From Coriobacteriia bacterium (GTDB taxonomy: Bacteria; Actinomycetota; Coriobacteriia; Coriobacteriales; Eggerthellaceae), in the NCBI GenBank assembly GCA_030536315.1, contig JAUNQF010000001.1, positions 12,831 through 76,830 on the forward strand: a stretch of DNA of 64,000 nt. The letters are read 5' to 3'. Under the pieces are notes generated by a model. The model was not told the origin of the DNA and searched no databases. It worked only from the letters and a program-made list of their open reading frames with translations. Of the stretch, positions 10,738-41,440 are shown one piece after another. Made by a program: the position numbers and the translations under genes. The stretch's first letter is position 1. The number at the start of each line of letters is the position of its first letter.

Positions 10738-11037
10738 ATGGAATTTGAAGTTTCAAAAAACGCCGAGAAAACAACCGTAAAGGTTAAGGGCAAAATTGAC
10801 TCGGCAACAGTCTATGAGCTGGAAGAAGGCATCAAGGAAGAGATGCTTCTCGCAAAAACAATGGCAATCGACTTTAGCGAACTCGAATACATCTCATCTG
10901 CGGGCGCGCGTCTTCTGCTCATGATCCAGAAAAAAATGAACAAGCGCAATGGGAACCTCGTAATTATGAATTGCAATAAAGATGTGCTTGATGTATTTGA
11001 AAAGACGGGATTTACACAAGTCCTCACAATAATCTAA
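10738..11037 (+). CDS. STAS-domain anti-anti-sigma factor-like protein
   Basis: A single-domain STAS protein of 99 residues (SpoIIAA/RsbV type). These proteins bind an RsbW-like kinase when unphosphorylated and are switched by phosphorylation of one Ser. Here the likely site is in EYISSAGARLLL near residue 57. The C-terminal part, VFEKTGF, is typical. It has a GAGAGATAGGAAA leader and lies 15 bases before a gene carrying both a SpoIIE-type phosphatase and an RsbW-like ATPase. The pair thus encodes a whole partner-switch module; the sigma factor or other target is not next to it. Confidence 0.92.
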   Translation: MEFEVSKNAEKTTVKVKGKIDSATVYELEEGIKEEMLLAKTMAIDFSELEYISSAGARLLLMIQKKMNKRNGNLVIMNCNKDVLDVFEKTGFTQVLTII

Positions 11038-11052: not shown

Positions 11053-13791
11053 ATGCCATTAGTTTATGCAGGATTAATCACAACAGTTTGTACTGTTATT
11101 CTTTTTGCCCTCGAGAAAAAGACGAAGTTCGGGCGCTGGAACCCGATTTTACGCCAAGTCATAATTGGTGTGGTTTTTGGACTTTGCGCGGCCTATGCAA
11201 CCGAGATCGGAAGTTTTAACGTCAACGGTGCAGCGCTTAACTGCCGCGACGCTGGCCCGGTCATTGCTGGTCTTATGTTCGGCCCGTGATCAGGTATTAT
11301 TGCTGGTGTCATCGGCGCGGCTGACCGCTTCTTCATTGCAACGCCAATCTTCGGCATCGGCGCATACACCTGGATTCCATGTTCGGTCGCAACGCTTTGT
11401 GCAGGTATTTTCGCGGGCGTTTTCCACGAACTAATGTTTAAAGATCACCGCCCATTTGTGCTTCACGCGCTTGTTTTTATCATGCTCACCGAAGTATTCC
11501 ACATGGGCATGGTCCCGCTCTTCCATATGGATGACATGCAAAACGCAACTATGGTAATGTATAACGTATTCCTGCCGCTGCTGCTCTCGAACGCGGCGGT
11601 TGTGGGTGCTTCGTTTTTCATCACCAGTTTTATGGACATGCGTTTCAAAGGCCACAAGGTCAGGGAAATCATTTTCAGCAAAGACATTTTCTTCACGCAG
11701 GATTTGTTCTTCAGTTTCCAATTTTGGTTGCTGGTTATCATTTGCTTCGCGTTTGCAACTAATATTATTGCAATGAGCTTCTTCAATGATCGCATGTCGG
11801 TCGCCAGCACCGAAACGCGTTTCAAAAGCGACCTTACTTCGATGCAAAAGCTCATCGTCCAGGACGCCGAAACCCTTCAGGTCAGCCACGTTGGCATGGC
11901 GAAGGTTTACGCCCGCGACTGGTCGGACGAAGAGGTCTCGCAATACTTCATCGTTAAAACTGCGACTGGCGAAATCCTCAGCAGCGAGCGAGGCGTCCCA
12001 GAGCTCTTCACTGAAGCAATGACTAAGCCTGAGCTAGACTTATTTGAGACCAACGTCAACGGCACACATTATTATGTGGATTATGCGAACTTAGAAGACT
12101 TCACAATTGTTCAATACTCAATTGAAAAATACGAGATGTTTATTCCGCACTTGAACTCGTCATTTACGATGTTCTTGCAAATCGTCGTTTTCGGTATCAT
12201 GATGTTCAGCGTTTTCATGCTGCTCAAAAAGTTGGTCGGCGAAAACCTCCTAAAGATTAACGAAAGCCTTGAGGCCATTACAAGTGGTAACCTCGACACC
12301 AAAGTTGACGTCTACAGCCACAAAGAATTTGCCGCGCTGTCTGACCGCATTAACGCTACGGTCGACACCCTCAAAGACTACATTCAAGCCGAAGCCGACC
12401 GCTTCAAGGAAGACTTCGAAATGGCACGTCAGATTCAGCTTTCCGCGCTGCCAAACGTTTTCCCTCCATTCCCAGACAACAAGGAAATCGACCTCCACGC
12501 TAAATATCAAAGTGCGAAGGAAGTTGGCGGTGACTTCTACGACTACTATTTCGTTAACAAAAATACGCTGGCATTCCTCATCGCCGATGTTTCCGGAAAG
12601 GGTATCCCAGCTGCTATGTTTATGATGCGTGCCAAGACAGCGATTCGCGTCTTCGCAGAAAAGCACCTCGATGCAGCCAAGACTCTCGAGGCCACCAATG
12701 ACTACCTCAATGAAAATAACGAAGCCGAGCTCTTCGTAACTTGTTGGCTTGGCTTTATCAACATCGAGACTGGCCTTATGCAATATGCAACTGCCGGCCA
12801 CAACCCACCGGTTGTCATTAATGACAAAACCGGCAAATGCGAATTCCTCGATGCGCCAATTTCGCTGGTTCTTGGTGGTATGGAAGGAATTAAGTACCAG
12901 AATGCTGAATATCAAATGCAGCCAGGCGAGAAGCTACTTCTTTACACGGATGGTATCACCGAAGCTCACAATGAAAAATCTGAGCTCTATGGCGATGACA
13001 CTGTTGTTGACTTCGCAAAGAAGAACATGAAAGCCGATGTCACAGTACTTTGCGATAACCTCTTCCAGGATGTTGAGAACTTCGCTGGCAAGGCTGATCA
13101 GTTCGATGACGAAACTGTTCTTGCCTTTATTTACAATGGCGCTCCAAAGAAGAAAGTAGAAAATTTGTTCGAAACTGAAATTAGCGTTTTTGCAAAGACT
13201 GAAAACGTCACCCGTGTTTGTGACCGCCTCGAAGAGATCCTTCCGCAAACTAACGCGCCGCTTGATTTTACGCCTAAGTTCTGCGTGGCCATCGATGAAA
13301 TTTTCAGTAACATTGTTAAATACGGTTACAAGGATCCAAGTAAATATGTAACTGTTCGTGTCCAGGTAGATGAGCGCGATCCTAAGAAAAAGGCAGTTAA
13401 AGTCACATTTGTTGATGCCGCTGACCGCTTCAACCCATTGGATGAAAGCGCGCCAGACATCACGCTTAGCGCTGAAGAGCGTGACATCGGAGGCCTTGGA
13501 ATTTACATGGTTCGCAAGCTTATGGACGATGTTTTCTACATTTACAAAGACAAGGCAAACAACCTTACCCTTGTAAAATACTTTGGTGAGGGCGCACCAA
13601 GCAAAGAAGAAATTCAAAAGATGCAGGAAGAAGAAAACAAAAAGCAAGCAGCCGAAGCTGCAGCAAAGAAAGACCCAGAACCAAAACCTAAACCAGAACC
13701 AAAAGACGCCAAACCTGCACCCAAATCAGAACCAAAACCAGCAGACAAAGACGCCAAACCTGCATCTAAACCACCAAAGGAAGACAAGTAG
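11053..13791 (+). CDS. LytS-type sensor with SpoIIE phosphatase and RsbW-like kinase
   Basis: A 912-residue membrane regulator. Residues 1-210 form a LytS-like 5TM sensor (GPVIAGLMFGPWSGIIAGVI). A further helix, an extracytoplasmic loop and a helix near 365-390 come next, then HAMP (about 390-445), a PP2C/SpoIIE phosphatase (about 455-690; EVGGDFYDYY, ADVSGKG, AGHNPP, LLLYTDGITEA, DDETVLAF) and an RsbW-like HATPase (about 705-842; DEIFSNIVKYGY, IGGLGIYMVRKL). The last 65 residues are a Lys/Pro/Glu repeat tail. One protein therefore carries both the phosphatase that activates a STAS partner and the kinase that inactivates it. The TGA at 11287 is read as Trp inside the sensor, where standard code would cut off all catalytic domains. 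It follows the STAS gene in one operon; the signal sensed is unknown. Confidence 0.93.
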
Positions 13792-15608: not shown

Positions 15609-17435
15609 ATTAGCAATGAAGAAGCAAATATAAGCAAAAGTGCGAAGGATTTCCGCGCGTATGTAAAGAAGAAAAGACGAGCTAACACACAGCAAATTTT
15701 TTACAGCACATTATCAACGCTGACAATATCTACTTTAACTTTCACGATTGCGATGGTCATCGATGGCGTAATTATTGGTCAGTTTTTGGGAACGAACGCC
15801 ATTGCCGCCTATGGTTTGGCACTGCCGATGTTCATCGCAACAAATGCTGTGTTTGGAATTTTTGCCACGGGCGCTCAATCGCTTTGTGGAAATTGCATGG
15901 GCCGAGGCGACATGAAAAGCGCCAACGGCTTTTTCAACGCGACCATGATTGTGATGGTCGCGCTTTCAATTTTGATCACTGCAGGCATGATATTTTTTGC
16001 TGAGCCCCTAGCCATCCTTCTTGGCGCAAATACAAGCACGCCTGAAATGGCAGACATAATGCAAAATACCAAGGGCTATATTATCGGGCTTGGAGTTGGT
16101 GTTTTCTTCCAGTTTGGTGCGAGGATCCTTTCACCCTTCATGCAACTTGACAACGATCGAGGCAAAGTCGCCCCGGCTGCGATTTGTGGATCGGCGGTCA
16201 ACATCACCGGCGATTTGCTAAACGCGTTCGTGCTAAATTGAGGCATGTTTGGTATGGCCTTTATGAGTTCGATGAGCTTTGTCACCGAATTTATTTTCTT
16301 GTCCACTCACTTTTTAAAGAAGGACAAAAACTATAAAATCAACCCTAAGCTTGCAGTTTGGAAAGGTTGGGGTCAAGTTATTCTAATTGGTTTGCCAACT
16401 GCGGTCCAGGCAGTTTGTAGCACCGCAAAAAGCATTTTCATGAATTACGGTCTGCTCGCCCTGGCTGGAAGCATTGGCGTTGCGGCCTTCAGCATTCAGT
16501 CAAACAGCCAAAACGTTTTCGGATGCGTAACCATCGCGCTGGGAGCAACCATTTTGATGCTCGCAAATATCTACGAAGGCGAAGAAGACAACACCGCGCT
16601 TAAAAATTTGTTCAAACATGGAATGACAGTGGCCGTTGCAATTGTTGGTGCAATCTCTGTTGTGCTGTTCATTTTTGCGCCGTTTGTAGCGCCGCTTTAT
16701 ACCAACGATTCCGAAGTTCTGGACATGGCCATCACTGCAATTCGCTTCTACGCAGCAGGAATGATCCTATACAGCATCAGCCTGACAATCCAAAACTTTA
16801 TTCAGGGAACCAAAAAAATCGGCCTTACAATTGTAATTTGTGCATGCTGCGAAATCATTTATGTGGTTGTTGCCGCGCTCAGCCTATCGCCATTTTTCGG
16901 CGTTTACGGTTATTGGGCGGCCTTCGCCGTTGCGCAAATTTTGACAATCCTCACATATTGCGTGATCGTAATAATTAGAAAGAAAACCCTCAAATTCAGT
17001 CTGGACAATTTCTTGCTTCTGCCGAAAGATTTCGAAGCCGACACAAGCAAGAAGTTTGAATTCACTGCAAGCGACGAAGAAGGCGTCATGATGTCTTCGT
17101 TTGGCGCTGAAGTTTTGTGCCAGAAAAATAATATCGATGCGAAGAAGACTAACGCAATTTCACTGTGCGTCGAAGAGATGGCAATGAACGTTGTTGAAAC
17201 TGGAATCAAGGATGCAAACAAGCAACGCGTCGACGTAAAAGTCCTGGTTAAAGGGGATAACATCATCATCCGCTTGCGCGACAATTGCCCGGCAATGAAC
17301 CCAATCGAGCACTTTAAGAAAATCAGCGACGAAGACCCGTTCGCCGCAATTGGAATTAAAATGGTAATGAACATTGCAAAAGATGTTAACTATATTAGTA
17401 CTATGAAGTTGAACAACCTCATAATTACTATATAA
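15609..17435 (+). CDS. MATE-family transporter fused to RsbW-like ATPase
   Basis: A fusion of about 608 residues. The N-terminal part (about 45-470) is a 12-helix MATE exporter (VIDGVIIGQFLGTNAIAAYG in helix 1, SIGVAAFSIQSN later). The C-terminal part (about 480-608) is a GHKL ATPase of RsbW type: CVEEMAMNVVE is the N box, LRDNCPAMNP a degenerate G1 box, DPFAAIGIKMVMNI the G2 box. Such domains normally phosphorylate STAS proteins, and the next gene begins with STAS. TGA at 16239 is read as Trp. No ATG, GTG or TTG lies upstream of the first helix in this frame; ATT at 15609 with AAGGTG seven bases before it is the best start, while ATG at 15753 would cut off helix 1. A small ORF ends at 15606. 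Confidence 0.85.
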
Positions 17436-17455
17436 TGAAAGTGGAAAGGAAAACT

Positions 17456-18799
17456 ATGGCTAAGAAAGAAACTAAAAAGACTTCAATGCCAAAATCCGAT
17501 CTTGCCTGAGACGCAATGAAGACAAAAGGGGGCAAAAAAAGCGAGGTCGCAAAGAAGCCCAAAAAAGCAATGAAAAATGCGAGTGGCTTAAAGGGCTATT
17601 TGGAAGGCAACACCCTTTATGTTTCTATACCTCATAAGACAATTGATTCAAGCAACATCATGAAGTTTGACAAACAGCTTGAAGACATTATCAAGCAAAA
17701 GCAAAAGTGGGACATCGTGTTTGACATGGAAAACGTCGAAGCATGTTCGTCGTCGGTTTTGCGACGTATGGTTATGCTTAAAGATGCTGGCTATAACATT
17801 AAAATCATAAATGCCGGCCGTAAGCTTTATGACATTTTCGCGGTTGTTGGCTTCGACAAGATTGTTCACATCGGTACGAAAAAGCTCAACATTAACACAA
17901 AGAACATGAAGCAATTCGCCGAAGGTGGTAACGGAAAAATTTATGAGTTCACCCGCGACGAAATTCTCAAAATTTATTATGATTTTCAAAGCGAAGAAAA
18001 AATCGAGCGAGGCATGCGCAACGCGAAGCTTGCGTTCACCAAAGGCTTGCCTGTTGCCATACCTTATGCGTCGGTCAAAACAGACCAGGGTATTGGCATT
18101 ATTTATGAAAAGGTTATTGGCAAAAGTTTGGCTGCGACCATGCACAACAACAAGAAGTATTTCGATACTGGCGCGCGCGAAATGACGAAGCTATGCCTCC
18201 AGCTTGCAACAACTCACTTCGGCGACGAAGAGCTAACCAATGTTAAGCTTGGCTTCGTAAATGGTCTTGACCCAATTGCGAAGTTCTTGCCGCCGCATTA
18301 TGTTGATGCTTACAACATTGCAATCGAGATGTTGCCAGAAACTGACACCGCCGTCCATGGCGATTTCCACGCCAAAAACATCATGCTCGAAGGCAACGAG
18401 CTTTTGCTCATCGATGTTGATGACTTCGGTAGCGGCCATCCAATCTGGGATGTTGGTTCAATGTATACGGCTTACAAGTTCCTATCTGACAAAGGTGACG
18501 AAGACGAAACCTTCGCGATGGTCGGCATGAACGTTGCTGAAGCCGCACGTGTTTGGGACATCTTCTGCGAAGAATACTTCAAGGGTGTTGGCAAGCGCGA
18601 AACTCAGCGCCGTATTAATGCTGCAAGTTGGTATGGTGCAATTCGTACAGCGAAGCTCTACGCCAACCGCTTTGAGCTAACCACAATGAAAGACCCAACA
18701 ACAAAATTCGTTGTTGAAATGGTCAAACAGCTCCTCGATTTTAGCGTTATGGAGCACCTGTGGGAAATGGTTGAAATTTTCAAAACTTGGAAAGACTAA
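17456..18799 (+). CDS. STAS domain fused to APH/choline-kinase-like kinase
   Basis: A 447-residue two-domain protein. After a Lys-rich N-terminus, residues 45-150 form a STAS domain; FDMENVEACSSSVLRRM contains the Ser cluster where anti-anti-sigma factors are phosphorylated. Residues 155-420 are a small-molecule kinase of the aminoglycoside/choline kinase fold: HGDFHAKNIM is the catalytic loop and LIDVDDFGSGHP the metal-binding Asp motif. Its substrate is unknown; a sugar, amino alcohol or lipid head group is possible. TGA at 17507 is read as Trp. The ribosome site GGAAAGGAAAA fits ATG 17456. It lies between the MATE-ATPase and GT-GH3 genes, and its STAS part is the natural partner of the upstream ATPase. 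Confidence 0.87.
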
Positions 18800-20803
18800 A
18801 TGCCGAAGTATAAAATTAGTGTAATAACTCCGTTTCATAATGTCCCAAAGGACATATTTAAAAAGACGTGAAATTCTATGCAAGAACAAACGTTCGGTTT
18901 TAAAAACATCGAATGAATCATTGTTATGCATAATTGTACGAAGGGTGAAATCAACTTCGTTAAAAAGCTTGCGAAGAACCACTCTAATGTTAAAGTTAAA
19001 TTACTAAACAATAATTCGCACACTCCGTCCAGTCCAAAAAATTACGCGCTAAAACTTGCAACTGGTAAGTATGTTGGCTTCCTCGACGCTGATGACACAT
19101 ACTTAAAAAACTGTCTTGAAGTGGCAATTCGCGAAGCCGAAGTCGAGCGTGTGCAAGTTTGCATGTTCAGAATGGAATACCATCTTGAACACCCGAAGGT
19201 TCGACCAATAGATGAACGCACACTTTGGAATCAGGCCGAGGAAAAAATAATTATCAAAAAGCATAATCGCGACAACTACCGTTTGTATGCCGACAACTTT
19301 TATTTCCTTACGTCCAAAATTTTCGACCGCGAGTTTTTACTGAAGAACAAAATTAACTTTGATGAAACTCTTCCAATTGCTGAAGACTATTACTTCGCTA
19401 TGCAATGTTTTTTGAAGGCAAGAAAAATGATCTACTTGCCAAAGCACATTGGGTATCATTATTACATTCATGAAAGTTCAATTTCTCAAAGCGGCGAATT
19501 TAATGATGAGGATTTTCTCGAATACGCAAAAGGCATTCTTAAGTGCATTGAGCTGCCCGAAAAGCACGGAATTCACACAGATGCTGTTAATGGATTTTGC
19601 ATGGTTGTGGCGCTTCGAATTTTAATGTGCCCTAATTTGTCGATTGAAACGCGCATGAAAACCAAGGAGCTTTTCGCGCCGTACATCAAAAATAGAATTA
19701 CCCAAAAAGAAAATAAGCTTTATGCAATTGACAGGCTTTCTTCGCGGTATTGAATTGCTCGTATTGTTCTTATGAATCCTAAGAATCCTTGAAAAGCGTA
19801 CAATGATGAATTAATTTTGAACTCAACAGTTAATTTAACTGCTATTTTAGGGCTTAACAAAAATACTGATTATGGGCAAAAGCATAAGTTTAGTTCGGTA
19901 AACAATATTAAAAAATTCCAACAGCTGCCTTTAATGACTCGAAGCACCCTTGACAGTTTTATCCGCTTACAAACAAATATTGGCGAATCGGACATTCTTA
20001 TCAATGGAAGACCTCTTGCGTATTTGTCAGATGCTAATGGTAGTTTGTTTATGAATACAAATGCTCAGATGCATCAATACAATGAACTTTTCAAAAACAT
20101 TTTTGAAGGGCAAACAACATTTTTGGTTGCGAAGTATAACAGCAAGAAGTCCCAGCTAACTAATGATAAATGCACTATAAGTAATTTATCTGATGCTATG
20201 CTTAAGAATTATTTTTTCAATTATCGTGATCAAATTCAAACAAACGCAAAATTTAGTTCCAGTGACATTTCGTACTTCAAAAATATTTCAAATAAAGAAC
20301 ATTTTACAAATCTTGCGAAGGATGCACTGAAGGATAAAAACATCACAAGAATTTTTGCCTTCGACATTAAAGATTTGCTTTACATGTTTAAGATCATCGA
20401 AGGTATAAAGCCAAGTGCTCTTAAAGATATCAAAAAAACTTGGCCGAAATTAAAAATCGTTATTGGAACAAATTATGAAAACAATTCCGCGTATTATAAA
20501 AAGATTAAAAAGATTATTGGAAATGTTGAATTTTCGAACGGCATTTACCTTACCGAAGCTGGTATTTTAGGAGCTTCCACAGACAAACCTGGCATCTATG
20601 AAAAAGTTTCTGACGGAAATTTCTATGAAATTATGGACTCAAAAGGCAAAGTTTTTAAGTTGTCTCAAGCTAAGGTAGGCAATACTTACACATTAATTAT
20701 CACAAATAGCGCGGGCCTTTACCGCTTCGTTAGCAATTATAAGTTAGAAATTGTAGGCAACCAAAACGGAAAGTTGACTTACAAAGTCTTGCCTTCTAAA
20801 TAA
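18800..20803 (+). CDS. Family 2 glycosyltransferase fused to GH3-type domain
   Basis: A 667-residue fusion. Residues 1-250 are a GT-A glycosyltransferase (ISVITPFHN, KNYALKLATGKY, FLDADDTYL, PIAEDYYF). Residues 340-667 resemble the GH3 superfamily, plant auxin/jasmonate amido synthetases and bacterial relatives that adenylate a carboxylate and join it to an amine. The match is clearest at the C-terminus (YLTEAGILG, then TNSAGLYRF). The usual nucleotide-binding TSGTTG is replaced by SDANGSLF and the later GD by SN, so this domain may bind without catalysis. Four TGA codons are read as Trp, at 18869, 18914, 19751 and 19790. It starts one base after the kinase stop, so it is coupled, and its 3' end overlaps the convergent GH84 gene by 25 bases. 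Confidence 0.72.
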
Positions 20804-23196
20804 GTAATAACTTTTTCAGCAAATGGTTGGAGCCTTTTCCCGCCGCCTTTTGGCGTTGCAAGATTTCCGTCAAACATTGTAATTTTTACATCAAGCGATG
20901 CTTGCATGTTTGCTTTCATATTTGTCAATGCAGTTTTGGCGCCTTCGATATCAGAATTATTTAAACAACGAAGCCCAGTAACCCCATTCAAGCTGGACAA
21001 ACACAAGAATTTCAACTGCTGCATTCAAGGGGAGACTTCATTGTAAAGAGTAGCGTTACTGTGAATTTTTTCATAGCTGTCAATTGCATTTAGCACAATG
21101 TTGTAATTTGCTTCAAGGCTTGCAAGGTCTGCTTCGCTGGTTGGATTGTCAGCTTCAATGGCGGTTGTGCAAGCCTCAATGGCGGGCGCAAAAGCTTCGC
21201 TTTCACCAATTTCATAACCATGAGAATGATAAGGGCTTGTGAAATATGTATTGTGTTTGGCAATTTCTTCAAGAGCATCTGCACCTAATTTGTCTACATA
21301 TTTAAAAGACTTCTGCCAAACCTCCATGCATTCATCATCGTTCGCAAAATTATTTCACGCAAAATAAGCAACTTGGAAAAATGCAACTTTGCTGGCTTGC
21401 GCTTCGTTCATTGGGTTTGAAACAATACCTATGCTCCCAGTGCTTCCCGGCCTACACTGATACGCCGGACCAATATTTAGGTGATCATTAAAATAATCAT
21501 TAACAGGGAAGTTTAGCCACATATAAGCATCATGCCCGCTCAAAGACTTAAATTTTGCAAGTGTTTCGTTCGAAGTTGAACCATAAACGCAATCTCCGGT
21601 TCACATAATTTTCACGTTTTGGTCAAGCTGTTGAAGAGCAAGCAAGTAATCTTCGCCCTTCATAAAGTCTTCGCAATATTGAGTTGGCACAAAATCAATA
21701 GTAGAAATTCCGTAACTATCTTTAAGCCAGTTTTGCAAATCCTTTACTAATTTAATTTGATTCGAAGCAACAACACCTTCGCCTTCGGCGGCATCATCGG
21801 CAGAAAGACAAAAATTCCTGACTCCAATATTGTAGGTTTGCGCAAACTTTGCCTTAATTAAATTCAAGTCCGCTTGATAAGTTTCTTCGGTTGAAAAGTC
21901 AACAGGGTTGTGCATTAATGGGTGAATTGCCCAGGTAACTTGAATGTTTTTTTGCGTGCACAAGTTAACCATCGCAACCAATTCGTTTAATTTATCCTGT
22001 GGGTAAGGCTCTCTCCATTGCGAACTATGATAAGGGTCATCCTTTGGAGCGTAGAAAAATTGGTTCATCTTAAATTGCTCCATGTAATTGACAATGTCTA
22101 AGCGGTCGGTCAAACTTCACGGCTGCCCATAAAAGCCTTCAATCACACCACGAGTTGCAAGTTCTGGGTAATCGCTAGCATCAAAACAACGAAGCTTCAC
22201 ACCCACAATTTCATTAAATATATCTTGCATTGTAGTCATAGCGAAGTAACACGCGCTGTTGTCGTGCCCCAAAATAGCAAGTTTATCTGCGGTTACATAA
22301 ATTTGATAACCATCGGCTTTTGCAAGAGTATCACCATCAAGTTTTCCGGCAGTGTCAATAAATTCAAAGGCCGCGCAATCTTCGCCAACAGTTCCAACCA
22401 AAAAATTACTGTCGCTGTTAGTGTTATTTGTGTTCTCCGCAAAGCTCAAATTCTTTGAACTTAAAACTTCGGCTGTCTTATTTTTTGTAACATCATTAAT
22501 TGCATGACTGTATTCAATTAGAAGGTCTTGCCCCAAGTTGAAATATCCAACGCCATATTCAATATCTTTTATAGCAAAATCAAGGTCAAAAGTATCTGTC
22601 ACTTCCACCTGATCAACATCAAATGCAAGCTCAAGAACATGCTGGTTGATAAGGCTTTCTGCAACTTTATAATCAAGCCCATCTACAATGATATTTATTT
22701 CGTTTGTGTTATTTAGAACAATGTCAGTATCAACTTGGCAAGGAAGTTTTCCGCTATATAAATTGTTTTGTCCAACTTTAAAAGTTCAAGTTGCGCCGTC
22801 CATCCCAGTAACGTCATCACAATAATTTGCAGTGAATGAATTTAGACTAATATCATAGTCGCAATTTTTTTGCATGTTGCCAGGTAAAACATTTACGGTT
22901 TGCGCATCGCTATTTATTTCAGCATTAATTTCGTTGTCAATTGTGACGCCATTATACGAAGCAAAAGCCTTCACTCCGCCAAATACACAAACTAAACTCA
23001 GAGCAAAAATTCCGGCCCCAAAAATGAATTTTTTAAAGTCTTTAAACTTAAAGTAAGCAAAAATACCCAATGCAATTACAAACAATATAAAAATAGTAAA
23101 AATGATTCCAAGCATTGGATCAAAAGTTTGTGCTGTTAAAGAGGGGCTACCAGGGGCTTTAACAAAAGTCAAGTATGTTTTTAGTATCTCTGGCAT
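20779..23196 (-). CDS. GH84 beta-N-acetylglucosaminidase, membrane-anchored
   Basis: An exported glycosidase of 805 residues related to clostridial NagJ/hyaluronidase, removing GlcNAc from host glycans or O-GlcNAc proteins. Two hydrophobic helices near residues 28-77 anchor it instead of a normal signal peptide. A GH20b-like N-domain follows, then the GH84 core: RGVIEGFYGQPW, APKDDPYHSSQWREPYP, and CLSADDAAEG with the adjacent catalytic Asp pair (about 465). MWTGDCVYGS, VSNPMNEAQASK and a helical C-domain complete it. Five in-frame TGA codons are read as Trp, several at positions where NagJ-type enzymes have Trp (QPW, MWTG, YFAW). The start is ATG at 23196 behind a -10 box; a TTG at 23223 lies upstream of that box. 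The 3' end overlaps the GT-GH3 gene. Confidence 0.93.
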
Positions 23197-23203
23197 GCGG
23201 CGT

Positions 23204-23209
23204 ATTATA
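23204..23209 (-). promoter_or_regulatory. TATAAT -10 box, leaderless start of GH84 gene
   Basis: On the minus strand TATAAT is followed by ACGCCGC and then the ATG at 23196, a seven-base gap without ribosome site. Confidence 0.6.
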
Positions 23210-23264
23210 CAGAAAAAATTCAAAAAATTATCAAAATTTTTGTCACAAAAAACAAGAAAAGAGT

Positions 23265-23270
23265 ATAATA
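23265..23270 (+). promoter_or_regulatory. TATAAT -10 box of the giant surface protein gene
   Basis: TATAAT in GAGTATAATATC, about 92 bases before the ATG. Unlike many genes here this one has a leader and a strong AAGGAG site at 23351-23356. Confidence 0.5.
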
Positions 23271-23362
23271 TCTTACTATCTGTGCGCGAATTGATATATT
23301 CAATTTTTTCTGGCGATTCTGCATGGGTTAGAAATATTAGATCAAAATGTAAGGAGAGAAAA

Positions 23363-26300
23363 ATGAACAGTCGAGAAAAACAAAGAAGGGCTATGCACGC
23401 AAAGGGCGGAGCATTAGCCAGAGTTCGACAATTGCCACTCTACATGAAAATCATTAATGTAGTGCTTGCAGTTGTCCTCGCGCTTGGCGTAGGTTCAAAT
23501 TGGGCTTACGCTGCCGAATTACTTCCAGAAGCTGGAAGCGAAGCAGTAACTGTTGCTCAAGATGGCAGCCAGACCTTAACATCTGCATCGGTCGGAAAGG
23601 CCAATTCAGGTGAAACGGTCTCTTATGCTTGGCAAATCTTGAATCAAGCAACAGGAGATTTCATCGAGATTAATGGTGAAGTTGCTTCGACGATCACAGT
23701 TGATTATGCAATGCTTAAAAATCAGCTAGATGAGAACAACACCACAACGGTTCGTTCAGTCGTTTATGATTCAAGCGAAAAAGTAATTGCCCAAAAGGAC
23801 TATTACATTTCAATGGATATGAACATGAAAACCATTGGTGAAGCTGTCCAAGCAAATGCGCTTGCTAGTTTCCCAGGTGGCGAAACTCTCTATGCTGAAG
23901 GACAATCTAATGACCCAATCAACGCAGAATATGCAATTACCATTAACTACGTTGATTCAAAAGGTCATGTTCTTTTAAGTAATTCTGAGAAGTTTCAAGA
24001 GCAAACTGCAATTAGATGGTTTGTTCAGTTGCCAGGCGGTTATACAACAAACAATGCTACCGTTAAATCAAAGCAACCTGCCGATGTAATTAACATTGCC
24101 TATCAGGAACCAGATCTTAAGCTTGATGGTCTTTATATTACCTCTGCTAATGGTATTACAGGCAACGTTGAAATTGATGCTGTTGTTGCATCTGAAAAGT
24201 TCCCATATGATATCAGCGCTGAATACGAAAAGCTAATAACTGGTGATTATGATCCTCCTGTAATTATTCCTGGTGGTGAAAACGGTGAAGGTGATGAGCT
24301 TGGTGCTGTTATCCCAAGTGATTATGATAAAACTTACTTAACTGAAGTATATAAAGGAAAAGGCTGGGAAATTACATACAACGTTCCAAGTACTGTTCGT
24401 GAAAATAAACAAACTGTTTCAGTAAAACTCTCTAGAACATATTCTACTCTCTATTTTGATCTCAACGACGGTATCAATGGTCCTGTCGCTGTATATATTA
24501 AACAAGGTGTTTCTTTTAACACTGTTAAAGCTTGGAAGCAAGGCACAACTGATGTTTATCTTCCAAGTCCAACTCCATTTAAAAATGCCTATAACTTTGA
24601 TAGTTGGAATACGGCAAAAGACGGTTCTGGCACAAAAATGCCAACAGATAACTGGGCAAAAGATACAAATCCTGCACCAGGTACCGATACAACGTATTAT
24701 GCACAATGGGTATTTAGTGGTACAGACACAACTCCTGTAACTGTTGTTTTGGCTTACTGAGGCGAAATGGCTGATGCTGGCGGACAATATGAATACTTAG
24801 AAGAACGTTACGATCAAGTACCATATAATGAGATTCAAAATGGTTATACCCTTCCAATTAATGGAAAGGATGGTGCTTATAACCCACAAAGATCAGGAGG
24901 CACATATCTTCCAAAAACTGATAGACGTTATCCACAAATACGTAAAAAAGATTCTTCAGGGGATGACTTACAATTTGATTTAGATGACACCACAACAAAT
25001 ACACTTCAAATTCCAAACCTTAACAGTCTTGCTGGAACAACTTTTGACTATGATGATTTGTATTTCTATGCTGGAGATGACACACACACTTATAACACTT
25101 CAACTGGTGAATTTACACCTAAAAAAGTTGAGGTTAGAGCAGATGGAAGCACGGTAATTAACATTGCTCTTAACCGTAAAGTGTTCAGGTTGCAGTTTAG
25201 TCGTAACCGTTATACAACACAAACAATTTTTGGTAGATGAGGTCAAAAAATTTATGGTACCTATACTTCAACAGGGTCTGCTGTTGATAAAGTAATTGAA
25301 GATCCACGTTATCCAGGTGATGCTAATCATTATCAATATGGTTATTTATATATGCGTAATTACTTTAGTTGTAGTCGTTGGGATATTGAAGGAGATACTT
25401 CATCAACCACAGCTGCATCGCTATTTGCATACATGCCGTATGATAATACCGCTCAAGGATGATCGTCGCATACATGTTCAAACCCGTATTCTCCAGGAAC
25501 TAATCCAAGCAATTATTATTGAGGTGGATTTAATTGTTCTTATTATGATAACTCTACATCTAATTTGCTTAAGTATTATTTGCAGACTGTTGGTGCTGAA
25601 TTTATGCACTGAGGTCGTGATTCTGGACATAGCAGCACTTTAGATAATCGTATAGCAACATTAAAATATACATTAAAAGCTGCAGATACTCAATATAATG
25701 GTGGACCAAAGTATCAAAAAAACTTTGGTGAATCTACCGCTACATATGGTACAGGTGATGGAGAACCTAATTTCACAATTGGATCTTCCACAGGTTCTAC
25801 ATTGGTAAACGTTTTTGTTGATTATTTAGGTTTTCAATCCTTAATTGCACCAAACTCATCGCATCCAGAACTTCAACAAAGAGGTTATGATTCTCCTTTG
25901 AGAGGTTCAAATCCAAAAGATCCAGGAGCAACTAACGATAATTCGCAAACTCGTTCAGGTGGTTGGTCATTCTATTATAAACGTAATACTTTCCCACTAT
26001 ATATTAAGAATATTTATGGTTCAGAGCCTGTTTATGATGATAACGGAAAGATTGTAGCTGGCCACTATGATTATTGTATTGAATTTCAAGCCGAAGTTCA
26101 ATATGGAACACCAATTGACAGGATTGTTTTTGACCAAGGTGGATCTGATGGTTTTGAACAAGGTGAGCCAACAAAGGGTGGTTCTAAGGTTGATGGCTTA
26201 ACTGGAATTAAAAATGGAGACAGTTTAAGTGCTCAAGGATTTGTAACAAGCACAGCAGAGCTAAAAGTTCCTGCTAGTCAAGATGAACATCTTGTATTTG

Positions 26301-29300
26301 ATGGATGGTATGAAGATAGTGGTTTTGCATCAAAGATTGAGTTTGATCCTACCAAAGATACTTATTGGAAGATGCCTAATCACCAGCAAGATATTTATGC
26401 AAAATGGGTAAAACCACAACAAAATATTAGATATTGATATACAAATCCTACTACAGGTCAAGAAACACCAGCTTTATCTGAAGTTGAAACATATGATACA
26501 AAAATCGTTCACCAGCCAACTGATCCTGTATCAACTGATACAGAGCGTTTTGTTAGTTGGTATTATTGGACTTCAGCCACTCATACTGAAGAAAATAAAG
26601 TATATTTCAATCCTTCATATATGAATATGCCATATGTAGAATATGGTAGCGAACCTGACAAAAATGGACGAATAGAAGGTACGGATTGGGTTGATGCTTT
26701 GACCTTGGATGTACATCAAGAATGAGTTACCGAAACTAACACAGAATATACGTTCCAGTTTATGCTTGAAAATACAACTACTAAGGTAGCTGACGATATC
26801 GTCGGTCGATGTGATTATTATGTGGATGAGCAACATACAGGAGACCATCCTTCTTATGATCCAACAAAGATGGATCCTACTGATTTTTATGTAGAATACC
26901 GCGGTGTCTTAGCATCGAAGGATACTGGTCCTTGGCAATTTGATAAAATTGTTAAGAAAGAAAGTCCAACTGACAATCTCCATATTTTCTACTTTAAATA
27001 TGATAAAGAATTTTGGTATAAAACTGTATACCAATATGCTGGTACTGATGGACAATATCATCAGTTTAAGGCTATAGATTGGCAAAAGAGTGGTGAAGAT
27101 CATTCTGGCCATGAAATTGCACAAACTGTTGATGCCGGTGATGCTTTTATTAATAATCCAGTAGGTGATGATGGAAAGACTTATCCAGTTCATTTAGTAA
27201 GTACTCGTACAGTTACTAAGAACTTATTAGCAGATGGTGAAGCTGGCCATCCAGATGACAACATCTTCTATTTTAATTATGCAATGAATGATGATGTTAA
27301 ATTCATTTACAAGACAGCCACATTTGCTAAGGCTCAATATGGTAATCCTGAACTTACATATAATGGTGGCTCTGTAAACCCACAAGAACAAACTGTTGCG
27401 GTTATTTTGCCTGATGGACAATTCAGCTCAAGTACTGCTACAGCATTTAATGGATTTAAGTTTGTTGGTTGGTATCCAATGGGTGCAGATGGCAAGATTG
27501 ACCTATCAAAACCAGCAATTACTACAGATAATATAATCAATGCTCCAAAGAATACTGATGGCTTCTATATGGAAGGCGCCACATACTTTGCCGCATTCGA
27601 ATATGATGCAAATATCACAATTAATTATAATGTACGTGCTGCAAAATCTATTGATGCTGCTGGTAACCCTCAGGATGAGATTACCCCAGCTCCAACTGGC
27701 ACAACATTAACTCCAGCTTCAGAGACAAATACTCCTGTTGGTTATACATTTACAGGAACTGTTGCTGACCCAATTGCTGGTGGTTTCTATGCTTATAGAT
27801 GGGTTGATTCTCAAGGCAATGTTGTAAAAGCTGCTGGTCAGACTGATATGAATAAGTTTGTTCCATCGGCTGTTGATTCAGGCCATGGTTATAGTTATTA
27901 TGAACAAGAAACATACACCTTATGAATCATCGAAAAAGGTGGCGATGATCAAGCTACAATTACTTACAAAGTTTCTACTGGCCAAACAGATTGGGGTGAT
28001 GTTGCACTTAATAGCACACCTGCAGCAAAAGGTGATTCTGTAATTGAAAAGCTTGCCCCTTATTCTGGCGTTGCCGTAGGTGCAATTGCTTCAATTTCTT
28101 CACAAATGTATAAATTTAAAGGCTGAAGCAATACTGACGGCGGTGAAATTATTGCTGGCTCTAAAGAAAAGTTTGTTCCAACAAAAGCTGATGGTGAGCT
28201 TTGAACTGACAAGACATATTATGCAGTCTTCGCACTAAACCAAGTAACCATCAAATTCACCACAGATGGCCATGGTGATTTAACAAATGGCGCAGATTTG
28301 ACTGCAACTGTTAATGATACATATACTGTTACTTCAGCTGCAGCTGCTGAAAATCCTGGAAAGTTTGACGTTTTCCATGGAGGTTCTAGCATTCGTTCTG
28401 TTACTCAAAAACCTTGGTATGGTTATAAGTTTAAAGAATGGGTTCTAGATCTTGGTAGCGGTCAAGAGCAAGCTCTTCCTGTTGATAAAACTATTACATC
28501 TGATTTGACGTTCAAGGCTAAATATGAAGAAACGTCAGCAGTATTAACTTATGTTCCTTATCCTGATACTATCATAGGTAAAGTTCAAGAGACTGGTGGT
28601 GCAGTTTCTGATAGAGTTCAACAAAATGTTTTAAGTGTTTCAGGAGCTCCAGCATCCGTTACTGCATTACCTGCTACTGGATATGCATTTGATTATTGGA
28701 CAAAAGATAGTCCTGATGGCGATCATATTACTGGACAAACAATTACTGCTACTCAAGATACAGAAGAAGGCACAGGAAGAAAAGCATTTAATAATCACAC
28801 ATATTATGCTCATTTTAAGACATATGATGTTACAGTAAAGTTTATTGTCCATGAGGATTATCCAAATGGTGAACTTAGCGATGTAGAAGGCGAACCAGTT
28901 GATACTCATCAATTTACTGTACAGTCTAATTCTCAGTTTAAGATTGAAGCCCAAACTGGAACATATGGCAATGTAGGCTTATTCAAGATTTGGGCGCCAG
29001 GTGCTAATGTCGAAACTGATGATCCAGTAGTTATTGAACAAATTTCTTCTAATAACACTGAACAACATTATTTAACTTGGTTAAGAGCTAAATTGAAGGC
29101 TGTTCCTGATGAGTATGATTATGATTACTCGTCATTACCAAGTCCTCAGATATTAAATGATCCATCTGGCACGGAATATATCTTTGCTGGAGTATTACAA
29201 CAACGTGGGCAAACTGAGTATCATATTCGTTATTGGCAAGAAAAAGTTGATGCTGCTGTAACAGATAATCCATTAGAACATCATCCTTATACTAGTGAAT

Positions 29301-32300
29301 ATTATACTCAGGAAGGTGATGATGTAATTGCTACTGGTACCAAAGGCCAACAAATGGTATATGATCCAAAAAGTTATGAAGGTTTCAACATTCAAAAAGT
29401 TATTTATACTCCTACAGATAAGCTAATTCCTGAGGAAGGTACTGGTTACGTAGATATTTATTATGATAGACAAGAAGATTACGAGTTTGTATTTAGAAGC
29501 CGTTCACAAACACCGGAAAATGCTGCAGCTCGTGTTCTTGACCCAGAGTTACCGAAAGAATATGAAACTACATGGGAATCTCTATATGACTTTTTAAGCC
29601 ATGATGAAGCTGATAAAGTTCCATGGAGTGGTATTTACGGAGCTAAGTTTATTGCTTTTGATACACCATGAGGAGACAGAAATCAAGAAATTGTCTATGT
29701 GTATACAGATCCAAATAGTGGCGAAGTACAATCAACAGATCCTTTAGTTCAAGAAGGTGGTTACTTACATGAGTATTGGAAAAAGTTCCATGACGAATAC
29801 CAGTTAGGTAACGCACATTATTATACTATTGGTGAGCGTCCAGAAGGCTCTACTGAGTATCCTGGAAAAGGTATTTGTGATGTATATTACGATAGAGCAT
29901 CTAACTACCCTTATTTTGTAAAGTATTATCGTGAGAATACAGCTCAAACTGGTTGAGAGGCAAATTCTCAATTAATGACATTTAATGATTCTGTGGATGG
30001 CCAATTAATGGAAATTGTTAAGGATGGCGTTCTCCAAGAAGAATATAATTTTGAAAATTCTAAAGATCCAATTCCTAACCCAGAAGAGGGTGGCCCAACT
30101 ACTTGAGATGCATATTTACAAGGCTTTTCATATGGTGGTTGTGACCCAGTAACAGGTAGTGTTCGTACAGATTCTTGAGGTTGCGGAGAAAATTATATTT
30201 GGGCTCATTACGATTCTACTGCAAAGAAATGGATTGAAGATCCAGAAAAAATTGAAGGTGTTAGCTATAAATATGCTGTTATGAAAATCTATTATGTAAG
30301 AAATACAAATACACCATATAGTATTGATTATTATCAAGAGACAGCTTCTAGTGCACTTGATCGTTATAATCACAAAAAAGAAACTGTTAAAGCAACTGAT
30401 TACGCAAAAGTAGAGGGTGATACAGAAGAATTATTCGGCGTAACCGGTCAGACAGTTCCACTTAATACTGATGTAAATAAGTATACAGGATTTACCTATG
30501 TAGCAACAGGTTCTACACTTTCTGAGGTTGTTTCAGATACTCAAATTGAAATTAAGCCTGATGGTAAAGCAGTTGCAAAGGTTTACTTTACTAGGAATAT
30601 TAATCCTGCTGATTCGCCTTCGTTTACTGTTAAATATTTCTTGCAAAATGTTGACGGTGAAGCTGCTGCTACAACTTACACAGAGCAGGCTGAAACTAAG
30701 ACCGTTAAGGCATTTGCCGATGCTAAGATTTATGTTTCTAGCCAAGCAGCTCAAGATTTAGATGGCATGTGGGATCAGATCAAGAATGATGATTACCTAA
30801 CTCAGGGTTATCATTATGCTGATACTATGTCAATATCTAAAACACCAGGTGGTCAAGGTTATGAGGTTGTAAAGGCTAATAATTCTACTGTTGTTAATAT
30901 ATATTTCGACCGCAATACTAATAACAAAGTTACGGTTAAATACATGAAGGAGACACTTAATCCTGTTACACAAGATCCAACTGGTGAATATGTTGAGGTC
31001 GTGGCTGATCGCGTAACTATTAATGGTGGTCAAACTGGCGATCCAGTTGCAACTGTTGTAACAGGTGCAAACTTCGACTTCGCTAGCTATGTTGTTGAAA
31101 ATAAATATAGAAATGGAACAACTGGCGAGGTTGGCTTTAATTTTGATCATACAAATCCAGCCTATGGTTCTATTCAAGCTCAAAAGTATTATGTAAAGGT
31201 TAAAGCCGATGGCACAACAACGGTTGAAATCTTCTATAACCGCGTTAAGGACAATATTCCTGTAACTGTTCACTATTGGGCTAAGGACCTTGACGCTGAG
31301 ACATGAACTACTCCGATTGCTGATGATGTAACTGATAGGCTTTCAACTGGCCAGACTTATGCTGCACCAATAAAGGAAATTGCTGGTTACAAATGAGACC
31401 ATTCGGACCCTGCAATTCAATATGCTTATCCATACAAAGATAATGGCGATCCAAACTCATACGTTTTGAATGTTTACTATACTCGTTTAACCAACGTTAC
31501 TTATAAGGTAGAAACATATTATGAAACTGTTGAGCATGCAAAGGATCATTCACACAGTCCAGAATGGAAATTGGTTAAGGAATTTAGCGATGTTGGAACA
31601 ACAGGTGACACTATTAATAAAGAAGGTCGTTTCACACCAACATTAGCTGGCTTTAATACTCCAACAACAGCCGGCGACGAAACAATTAAGGGTGATGGTA
31701 CTTCGGTACTTAGAGTATATTACACACGTACTGTATCTGCTGCAAAGGCTCGTGTTGAGGTTTATACTGAAACGTGGCAGCACGCTGTTGATCCAACATA
31801 TTCAGAAGATTATGTATTAGCTGAAGATCCAACAGTTTATACTGGCTTCATTGATGAAGAGATTGACCTAAAGGCTGCTTTTAATGACAAATATGTTGCA
31901 TTAGGTTATGTATGGAATGATGATAACCCTGATAAAGCAGTTCTAAAGGTTGTTAATTCCGCCAATGAAAACACATACAAAATCTACTTTGATAAGGATG
32001 TTGCAAGCCAAGGTCTTGATATTGTTGCACATTATGAAACTGTTGCTAGTGCTGTAGAACACAAGAAAGCCGTGCCTGCATTCGCAAGACAGTTTGCTAC
32101 TCAAGACGACGGACAATATGAATTTGGTCCTGTTACAAAACATCTTGACAAAGATGCTGTTAATGGTTTGTATATCGGTCGTGAATGCTCTATGGTACCA
32201 GGCGAAGGCTTTATTGATACTCCTGATGCTGAATTAGATAAAGCAGGCTTCTTCTTCGATGCAGATTTTAATTCTTCTGACGAAGCCAAAGCATTAACCG

Positions 32301-34507
32301 ATCCTGCAACATTCCCAACTTATACAATTCATCTTGAAACCGATGGCGAAAAGAATGTAGCTCATGTTTACTACTTAAGACAGACAAATATTTCATTTAC
32401 CGTTCATTACAAGCTTGAAACCACAAAGAGCTATGCAGATACAAATGATCAAGAAACTGCTGAACATAAAGCAGAACACTGGAATGATGAAGCAGTATCT
32501 GAAGATGCAGTAAAAGGTACAAACACACACTTCTATGACGATCAAAAATTGTCGCCATATTCTGGTCAGTTTACATATGGTTATTCATTTAACTTATGCG
32601 ACAAGACTGATTGGGGCTTCGATATTCCAGGTTATACACTTAGAGGATTTAAGAATTCTTCAGGAGATGTTATAGGTAATACAATTACAACTGATCCATT
32701 AACTGAAGTTTTAGCTCCGGTAGATACAGATTTAAGTAAGAATGAGTATTACATTTACTATGTAAAGAACGCTAATGAAGAATTTACCGTAAAATATAAC
32801 TTCGAAACATATGAATATGCTTCTGGGCAAGAGACTGACCCAGACAAGCGCTTTAAGTATGATTCTACAAAAGATGTAAAATTCCACTCTTATCTTGGAG
32901 ATGTAGTTGATAAAGATTATTATGATACAAGAACCATGGATGTATTAAAGCAAGAATTCCCGGGCTTTACTTTTATAGATGATTTGATGAGCCCTAAAGA
33001 ATTAACGCTTGAGTATGGACAAACTGAAGCAGAAAGAACAATTAATTGTTACTATTCTCGTGATTATTATAATCCACCTGAGTCTGCGGGTTATACGGCA
33101 ACTTATTGGGCAAATAAGATTGTAGATGGAGTTGTTAAGACTGATGAATTTGAATATCTTGGTGAAAAAGAATTTGATGCAATCTTCGATGAGCCTGTTA
33201 CAGTTAAACCTCGTGAGGCTGCTTTGCTTCAAAAGTCTGTAAAAGGCAATGAAAAGCTTGTTGAAGATTTTGGTGAGGAATATTTGTTTGATCATGCTGA
33301 TTATACTGCCGACACAACAGCAGAAAGCTTTAAAGTTGATGCTTCTCATACTCAATCAGTGAAGGTTTATTATAAGCCATATCTTGGTCCTAACCCACCT
33401 TCACCACAAGAGGCTGCATTTACTGTTACCTATAAGGGTCTAAGTATTGAAGCTGCGAAGGCTGGTGGAACTCACATAAGGGAACAATATACCGAAAAAC
33501 TTGCAGAAATTAATTTTGGTGCATGACCAGATGCTAAGATTACTATTGGCTATCAAGAACCATTAGCTCCAAAGAATAAGGTTAACCAGACATTTACAGG
33601 CTTTACTTATAATGCTAACTTAGTTGATATTAATGGTAGCCCTGCTACAACTCCATGGGAGCTAGACTTAGATACTGCAGCAAAGCAGACTGGTAATACA
33701 ATTACTTTGTATTATGATCGTGATGTTTATGATCCACCTGAGCCTCCTAATCCACCTACACCATTTGGTTATAAGATTAATCACATGGTTCAAAGCCTAG
33801 ATTACTTACTACATGGTATTGGTGAAGAATATGTATGTGAGCAAGAAGATTATATGAAGGCTGTTTATGGTGAGACTGTACAAGGTTCATATGCTGGAAA
33901 TACAGACATGAAAGCTAAGATTGATGCATTTAGGGAAGCTAATAAGACTGAGTCTGGTGAATATGGCTTTACATTAAGAGAAGATGATCCAATTAGCCCA
34001 GCTTCGCTGTATATTGATAAGCCTGATACTTATGAGTTCTATGTATATTATGATAGAGGACTTGATGATAAGTACACATTTAAGACTCAGAGAATGGTTA
34101 AGAATCCTGATTTTATTAGAGGAACTTCTGATGTTGAATACTTGGCGTTTGAAGATCCTCAAGAGTGTTATCCACTTTATAAGCAGGAAGTTGTTGATGC
34201 TACATGTACTGAAAGAATTTGGACACCTATTGAGGGCTATACTTTTGAGAATAGATGTAATCCAGATTCTATTACAATTCCTCAAACACCTGGCAATTTG
34301 CTAATGGCTTCTGCTTCAAATGAGGATTTGGGAACAATTCAAGGTTTCTATGATCTTGTTGAATATCCTCAGCCAGAATATGTAAATGGTCAAACTGGCG
34401 ATTCGCTAGGCTGGATTGTTGGAGCGCTTTCTGTTACTGCTCTTATTGGATTAGGACTCTTCCTTGCAATGAGTAGACGCAAGATTAAGTATGTTCCTAA
34501 GCACTAA
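23363..34507 (+). CDS. Giant repeat-rich surface protein, 3714 residues
   Basis: One continuous frame once at least 17 TGA codons are read as Trp; standard code gives about a dozen fragments. Residues 28-50 are a signal peptide ending in AYA. The N-terminal half holds Listeria-Bacteroides (InlB B-type) repeats with signatures such as YAQWV, FDGWYEDS and YKFKGW, the last with Trp from TGA. From about 29450 there are some 15 MucBP-like repeats of roughly 75-110 residues, each closing with YYDR, YYTR or a variant. The C-terminus is NGQTGDSLG, a membrane helix, then RRK: a reduced sortase-like signal without LP. It is probably a long wall-attached stalk or adhesin for host mucus or glycans. The start is supported by AAGGAG; a terminator follows. 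No enzyme domain was recognised. Confidence 0.88.
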
Positions 34508-41364: not shown

Positions 41365-41440
41365 AGGCCAGTAGTTCAATTGGTAGAGCGTCGGTCTCCA
41401 AAACCGAAAGTTGAGGGTTCGAGTCCTTCCTGGCCTGCCA
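41365..41440 (+). tRNA. tRNA-Trp(CCA)
   Basis: Cloverleaf with acceptor AGGCCAG, D arm GTTCAATTGGTAGAGC, anticodon loop CTCCAAA (anticodon CCA), T arm GAGGGTTCGAGTCCTTC and encoded CCA. The anticodon reads UGG, and position 24 is G, so it lacks the known D-arm change that lets a CCA tRNA read UGA. The UGA-reading Trp tRNA must be elsewhere or arise by modification. Confidence 0.97.

What the first reader, a model, noticed from the sequence alone, without database searches (positions are those of the whole stretch)
15609..20803. Cassette of MATE-RsbW, STAS-kinase and GT-GH3 fusions
Three adjacent, tightly spaced genes each fuse two domains: exporter plus RsbW-like ATPase, STAS plus APH-like kinase, glycosyltransferase plus GH3-like domain. 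The ATPase and STAS domains are natural partners, so a partner switch may gate the exporter or the kinase rather than a sigma factor. Kinase, GT and GH3 could build and the MATE protein export a small modified molecule or envelope part. I know of no described system with this layout.
Basis: partly seen in the sequence, partly recalled or inferred. Interest (0 to 1): 0.88.

Follow-up and report, generated by a model that had tools for sequence, protein, structure and literature searches.

The report
Exporter and kinase sharing a switch
In a gut-type bacterium that reads the stop codon UGA as tryptophan, a drug-type exporter and a small-molecule kinase each carry one half of a known protein on/off switch, and the same pairing recurs in many rumen and gut bacteria next to peptide- or amide-making enzymes, which suggests that the switch acts on export and modification of a compound rather than on gene expression.

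Summary
The genome reads TGA as Trp. With that code the three frames are single genes: MatE+HATPase_c_2, STAS+APH (TIGR02172-like) and GT2+GH3. GH3 here is the Gretchen-Hagen-3 acyl-amido-synthetase family, and this copy has lost its ATP-binding motif and C-terminal domain, so it is probably dead. It is not unique. STAS-APH fusions occur in at least 76 rumen/gut MAG loci; 22 of 29 dereplicated, well-flanked ones have partner-switch genes within 2.5 kb or a fused RsbW. MATE-RsbW fusions recur beside GH3, NRPS or STAS-APH. The closest relatives of both window proteins form the same two-gene pair, in the same order, in an Eubacteriaceae MAG. Phospho-acceptor Ser and kinase residues are conserved. 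Sigma genes are almost absent around homologues. Best reading: a partner switch without a sigma target that couples a sensor to an exporter and a small-molecule kinase. NRPS clusters with serine phosphatase, anti-sigma antagonist and MatE were noted in Methanobrevibacter ruminantium (2010); the MATE-RsbW/STAS-kinase module appears undescribed. No function has been tested.

The parts
10738..11037 (+). Stand-alone STAS protein (RsbV-like), motif YISSAGA
   Evidence: Pfam STAS 5.7e-16, TIGR00377 2.9e-18; STAS genes recur beside MATE-RsbW and STAS-APH elsewhere
11053..13791 (+). Sensor phosphatase/kinase: 5TMR-LYT + HAMP + SpoIIE-type PP2C + C-terminal RsbW-like HATPase (912 aa, TGA=W)
   Evidence: Pfam 5TM-5TMR_LYT 6.5e-22, SpoIIE 7.1e-50, HATPase_c_2 7.6e-18
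15609..17435 (+). MATE exporter with C-terminal RsbW-like ATPase domain (608 aa from 15609; ATT start uncertain; in-frame TGA=Trp at 16239-16241)
   Evidence: Pfam MatE 3.2e-23, HATPase_c_2 1.1e-08; AlphaFold2 pLDDT 83.9, pTM 0.81; MATE structures are the best PDB matches
17097..17426 (+). RsbW/HATPase_c_2 domain of the MATE fusion (N-box EEMAMN kept, G1 Asp kept with Gly to Cys, G2 partly lost)
   Evidence: motif table over 18 MATE-RsbW proteins
17457..18799 (+). STAS-APH fusion (first in-frame ATG at 17435; ATG 17457 has the better ribosome-binding site by eye)
   Evidence: Pfam APH 1e-09, STAS 2.2e-04 just below its gathering cut-off; TIGR02172 2.5e-29; homologues
17747..17752 (+). Codons of Ser105-Ser106; Ser106 aligns with the phosphoserine of SpoIIAA/RsbV
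   Evidence: Ser105 in 78/78 and Ser106 in 77/78 STAS-APH proteins; alignment to SpoIIAA Ser58 is from recalled sequence
17891..18577 (+). APH-like (TIGR02172) kinase domain; catalytic Asp310, Asn315, Asp327 and Lys179 kept
18800..20803 (+). GT2 + truncated GH3 fusion (667 aa with four TGA=Trp)
   Evidence: Pfam Glycos_transf_2 2.1e-19, GH3 1.3e-09, GH3_M 4.3e-06
19835..20758 (+). Degenerate GH3 (acyl-amido synthetase) remnant: motif I and GH3_C absent, motif III Asp lost
   Evidence: alignment with five GH3 proteins; AlphaFold2 model poor, pLDDT 64.5, so not used

Best explanation
The window carries a partner-switching module whose outputs are an exporter and a small-molecule kinase, not a sigma factor. 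Shown by sequence: a membrane sensor with PP2C and RsbW domains, a STAS protein, a MATE exporter ending in an RsbW-like ATPase domain, and a kinase of the APH/TIGR02172 family starting with a STAS domain. Inferred: the sensor's PP2C domain removes phosphate from the STAS serine when its signal arrives, and RsbW domains put it back. Unphosphorylated STAS (stand-alone, or the one on the kinase) then docks on the RsbW tail of the exporter, which changes export and/or brings the kinase to the exporter so that the cargo is phosphorylated as it leaves. In related loci the cargo would be an amide or peptide made by a GH3 or NRPS enzyme; in this genome the maker is unclear because its GH3 copy is degenerate and only the GT2 half looks usable.
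For: STAS-APH is a real, recurrent architecture: 80 best loci from one scan, 76 with a STAS+APH gene call. 22 of 29 dereplicated, well-flanked loci have PP2C, RsbW, STAS or MATE-RsbW within 2.5 kb or a fused RsbW; no PP2C lies 5-10 kb away. Natural STAS-APH-RsbW triple fusions put the three domains in one chain. MATE-RsbW lies directly beside STAS-APH in L095, L097/L098, L142 and L151. Both window proteins have the L095 pair as sister (supports 0.97 and 0.87), with the same gene order, so the pair is inherited together. MATE-RsbW neighbours GH3 in L073, L266, L273, L279 and NRPS/A-domain genes in L075, L076, L085, L253, L262, L269, L284. GH3 is rare in the class (4 of 260 genomes over cut-off), and in 3 of the 4 it lies in a partner-switch locus. 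Switch and kinase residues are conserved. Only one sigma-70 gene in the recovered genome; 1 sigma-like gene among 1014 genes of the 80 loci.
Against: No interaction, phosphorylation or transport was tested. The RsbW domain of the MATE fusion has a weakened ATP lid and G1 Gly to Cys, so kinase activity is doubtful. Many MATE-RsbW genes stand alone, including two paralogues here. The STAS/PP2C pair lies 1.8 kb upstream of the cassette with an opposite-strand gene between. The window's STAS has an unusual G-to-V change next to the Ser. The genome is only 75% complete, so other sigma factors may be missing. The neighbour census rests on profiles and a gene caller made here.
Confidence: 0.58

Rival explanations
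1. Reverse flow of information: the MATE protein is a transporter-receptor whose transport state controls its RsbW kinase domain; it phosphorylates STAS partners, including the STAS on the kinase, so that export flux reports back to biosynthesis.
For: E and N of the N-box and the G1 Asp are kept in most MATE-RsbW proteins; MATE-RsbW genes often stand alone, as expected for a trans-acting sensor.
Against: ATP-lid residues are weakened, and a dedicated sensor phosphatase is already present.
Confidence: 0.2
2. Classical partner switching: the RsbW domains hold a sigma factor, and the exporter and kinase fusions only localise or multiply the switch.
For: All parts belong to the sigma-B/sigma-F regulator families.
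Against: One sigma-70 gene (RpoD-like) in the recovered genome; 1 sigma-like gene among 1014 genes in the homologous loci; similar gene sets were reported in an archaeon, M. ruminantium, and archaea have no sigma factors (general knowledge).
Confidence: 0.07
3. The APH-like domain is a protein kinase of the switch itself (it phosphorylates STAS or RsbW partners) rather than a small-molecule kinase.
For: It is fused to STAS in all listed homologues, and to RsbW as well in 22 of 78.
Against: Its closest curated families are small-molecule or uncharacterised kinases (TIGR02172, methylthioribose kinase, APH); RsbW already provides the STAS kinase.
Confidence: 0.1
4. A decaying remnant: in a shrinking genome the cassette has lost its biosynthetic function and may be inert.
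For: The GH3 domain is truncated and has lost motif I; no ordinary start codon precedes the MATE frame; genome recovered at 1.09 Mb.
Against: MATE, RsbW, STAS and APH frames are open over their full length and the kinase residues are intact.
Confidence: 0.08

Closest known systems
NRPS clusters of Methanobrevibacter ruminantium M1 (Leahy et al. 2010, PMC2812497)
   Same: Serine phosphatases, anti-sigma factor antagonist and MatE exporter around a biosynthetic enzyme; the authors proposed sensing, regulation and export
   Different: Described at annotation level only; domain fusions MATE-RsbW and STAS-kinase are not mentioned in the passages read; NRPS instead of GT2-GH3
RsbU/RsbV/RsbW and SpoIIE/SpoIIAA/SpoIIAB partner switching
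   Same: PP2C phosphatase, STAS protein with a phospho-acceptor Ser, GHKL-type RsbW domain
   Different: RsbW is tethered to an exporter and STAS to a kinase; no linked sigma factor
ClbM and other MATE exporters of biosynthetic products
   Same: MATE fold; ClbM (4z3n) is among the PDB matches
   Different: Extra C-terminal RsbW-like domain
Bacterial GH3 enzymes such as OlsH (PMC12493201)
   Same: Family of the third protein's C-terminal part and of the intact GH3 genes in related loci
   Different: The window copy lacks the ATP-binding motif and C-terminal domain and is fused to GT2
TIGR02172 phosphotransferases (named from Fibrobacter paralogues)
   Same: Same kinase subfamily, conserved catalytic residues
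   Different: Scores below the curated cut-off; N-terminal STAS

Membership tests
Partner-switching system | PP2C (SpoIIE-type) phosphatase | tested here: met
   SpoIIE 7.1e-50 at 11053-13791
Partner-switching system | STAS protein with phosphorylatable Ser | tested here: met
   Ser106 in 77/78 homologues; that it is phosphorylated was not tested
Partner-switching system | RsbW-type kinase with intact ATP-binding boxes | tested here: inconclusive
   N-box and G1 Asp kept; G1 Gly to Cys and lid weakened in the MATE fusion
Partner-switching system | Sigma factor as target | tested here: not met
   One sigma-70 in a 75% complete genome, none linked; not all partner switches target sigma factors
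MATE transporters | MATE fold | tested here: met
   Pfam MatE 3.2e-23; model matches MATE structures
MATE transporters | Cation-coupled export | not testable with these tools
   -
APH / TIGR02172 kinases | HxDxxxxN and metal-binding Asp | tested here: met
   His308, Asp310, Asn315, Asp327 in 78/78
APH / TIGR02172 kinases | Score above the curated TIGR02172 cut-off (228.2 bits) | tested here: not met
   102.7 bits
GH3 acyl-amido synthetases | ATP-binding motif I (S/T-S-G-T-x-G-x-x-K) | tested here: not met
   Deleted or replaced in P0003
GH3 acyl-amido synthetases | N, M and C domains complete | tested here: not met
   GH3 20-83/304 and GH3_M 23-62/75 only; no GH3_C; relatives have all three
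GT2 glycosyltransferases | Family match and DxD | tested here: met
   2.1e-19; LDADD present, but the DDGS motif reads MHNC

The most novel reading that the evidence does not exclude
A post-translational partner switch in which signal-dependent STAS-RsbW pairing docks a small-molecule kinase onto its own exporter, a general, undescribed control layer for secondary-metabolite export in gut and rumen bacteria.
Probability: 0.35. Interest if true: 0.82.

Novelty: new variant of a known kind. Interest (0 to 1): 0.64.

Why it matters
Partner switching is known mainly as a way to free sigma factors. A widespread version wired directly to an exporter and a metabolite kinase would show how gut bacteria control secretion of peptides or acyl-amides without waiting for new gene expression, and would mark new biosynthetic clusters: STAS-APH and MATE-RsbW are easy genomic beacons for NRPS and GH3 pathways in rumen and gut microbes that lack known products.

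Tried and rejected
Glycoside hydrolase family 3: rejected, the Pfam match is the Gretchen-Hagen GH3. Frameshifted pseudogenes by table 11: rejected, the internal stops are all TGA and fall on conserved Trp (L095 MATE reads FVLPWGMLGM; GH84 GFYGQPW). Uniqueness of STAS-APH: believed after (none in 397 sampled genomes of the phylum), overturned. Scans of viral contigs with P0002, A1, A3 and A4 found nothing; plasmids gave only remote APH and GT2 hits. AlphaFold2 of GT2-GH3 was too poor to use. Solved-structure sequence searches with the STAS-APH protein and the RsbW tail gave only weak or irrelevant hits. Rows 2-4 of alignments A3/A4 are hand-written probes that only shape DNA patterns; confirmation used P0002 alone. 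One row of A2 had an insertion cut out by hand. The SpoIIAB/SpoIIAA sequences used as motif yardsticks are recalled.
Full report
Genetic code and gene models. By table 11 the MATE and GT-GH3 frames are interrupted only by TGA. With TGA=W the window has long uninterrupted genes, including a 3801-codon one. Support for the reassignment: TGA falls on conserved Trp in the MATE (L095 has FVLPWGMLGM where the window has FVLN-TGA-GMFGM); 85 TGA against 137 TGG codons in 31 window frames of 200 aa or more; the only RF-1-family protein found in the genome reads as RF1, so RF2 was not found; other contigs of the genome also carry in-frame TGA. The genome is 1.09 Mb, 75% complete; its phylum and class searches fit Actinomycetota/Coriobacteriia (large Streptomyces-sized genomes in the phylum sample; inference).

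The cassette. MATE-RsbW (to 17435), STAS-APH (to 18799) and GT2-GH3 (18800-20803) are packed without gaps. Domains are confirmed by Pfam and NCBIfam. An AlphaFold2 model of MATE-RsbW (13-sequence alignment) has pLDDT 83.9 and pTM 0.81, with a helical MATE body and a C-terminal alpha/beta domain; MATE structures including ClbM are the best PDB matches. The MATE body dominates that search, so it does not test the RsbW domain.

The GH3 half is degenerate. Aligned with five GH3 proteins, the window copy lacks the SGTxGxxK loop and about 50 internal residues, has YRF..N instead of YRY..D, and ends before the C-terminal domain. Linked GH3 genes elsewhere have all three GH3 domains. The GT2 half keeps DxD but not the usual DDGS motif.

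A larger module. Upstream lie a STAS gene (10738-11037) and a 912-aa sensor with 5TMR-LYT, HAMP, PP2C and RsbW domains (11053-13791). The same genome has a second PP2C-RsbW gene at a contig end and two further MATE-RsbW paralogues, both isolated.

Homologues in the same class. In another genus of the family, PP2C-RsbW, STAS, GH3 and MATE-RsbW form one run of genes (L073). In other Coriobacteriia, MATE-RsbW, STAS and PP2C-RsbW flank NRPS genes (L076/L086, L085/L090; L075 shows MATE-RsbW and NRPS only), and STAS + PP2C-RsbW without the exporter flank NRPS genes (L091, L094) or a likely phosphopantetheinyl transferase (L092, by eye). GH3 is over cut-off in 4 of 260 genomes of the class; in three of them it lies in a partner-switch locus (G000, G012, G635), while in G020 none is within about 10 kb on the contig.

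Homologues elsewhere. One scan of GTDB genomes found 170 relatives of STAS-APH; the best 80 are nearly all STAS+APH fusions from rumen and gut Clostridia and Bacilli, plus one Atopobiaceae and one Spirochaetales MAG. 76 had a STAS+APH gene call; 45 remained after 70% dereplication; 29 had 2.5 kb on both sides. Of these, 16 had PP2C, 12 a STAS gene, 7 a fused RsbW and 2 a MATE-RsbW within 2.5 kb; 22 had at least one partner-switch element. At 5-10 kb there was no PP2C. Sigma-like genes: 1 among 1014 genes.

The pair is inherited as a unit. L095, an Eubacteriaceae MAG, has MATE-RsbW (split by an apparent frameshift) followed by STAS-APH. It is the sister of the window in the STAS-APH tree (0.87; the next relatives L097/L098, support 0.99, also have MATE-RsbW alongside) and in the MATE tree (0.97). 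Its genome also has STAS-GH3-GH3 at another locus.

MATE-RsbW seen from the other side. In the order around L097, 74 of 295 genomes have RsbW-domain hits, tens of them in 560-640-aa frames. Of 40 MATE-RsbW loci examined, three have GH3 alongside, several an A-domain or NRPS gene, several PP2C or STAS, one STAS-APH, and about half none of these.

Residues. Ser105 and Ser106 are kept in 78 and 77 of 78 STAS-APH proteins; His308, Asp310, Asn315 and Asp327 in all. In 18 MATE-RsbW tails the N-box Glu is kept in all readable ones, Asn in 15, the G1 Asp in all; the G1 Gly is Cys in half and the lid is reduced.

Mechanism. Shown: domain make-up, linkage, co-inheritance, residue conservation. Inferred: STAS docking on the exporter's tail, control by the sensor phosphatase, kinase recruitment, cargo. 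A sigma target is disfavoured but not excluded, because the genome is incomplete.

Known context. Serine phosphatases, anti-sigma antagonist and MatE around NRPS genes were reported in M. ruminantium (PMC2812497). Bacterial GH3 enzymes make N-acyl amino acids, for example OlsH (PMC12493201). Literature searches for the fusions returned nothing relevant, but the library holds open-access papers only.

Noticed in passing
whole genome G000; window 16239, 18869, 18914, 19751, 19790 and others: TGA is read as Trp in what looks like a Coriobacteriia MAG; only RF1 was found, RF2 was not. The two papers on bacterial code changes that were checked by term did not mention this group.
   Followed up: partly
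L203 1498-1593 (G000:C4:4024-4119): A selenocysteine-type tRNA with UCA anticodon in the same genome, while the only tRNA-Trp found is CCA (window about 41365-41440); how UGA is decoded as Trp is open.
   Followed up: partly
window 23102-34507: 3801-codon gene for a giant surface-type protein with InlB-B-like repeats and 17 in-frame TGA codons.
   Followed up: no
window 20779-23223, minus strand: GH84 beta-N-acetylglucosaminidase with five in-frame TGA codons, next to the cassette on the opposite strand.
   Followed up: no
L253 5977-7977: AMP-binding enzyme with a C-terminal RsbW-like tail (HATPase_c_2 9.3e-05, below cut-off), next to MATE-RsbW: possibly the switch domain fused to the biosynthetic enzyme itself.
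   Followed up: no
L107, L108, L128, L142, L151 and others (22 proteins): STAS-APH-RsbW triple fusions, a whole switch and kinase in one chain.
   Followed up: partly
L096 and L140: Near STAS-APH and MATE-RsbW lie genes that look by eye like a radical-SAM enzyme and a C39-type ABC exporter (peptide cluster).
   Followed up: no
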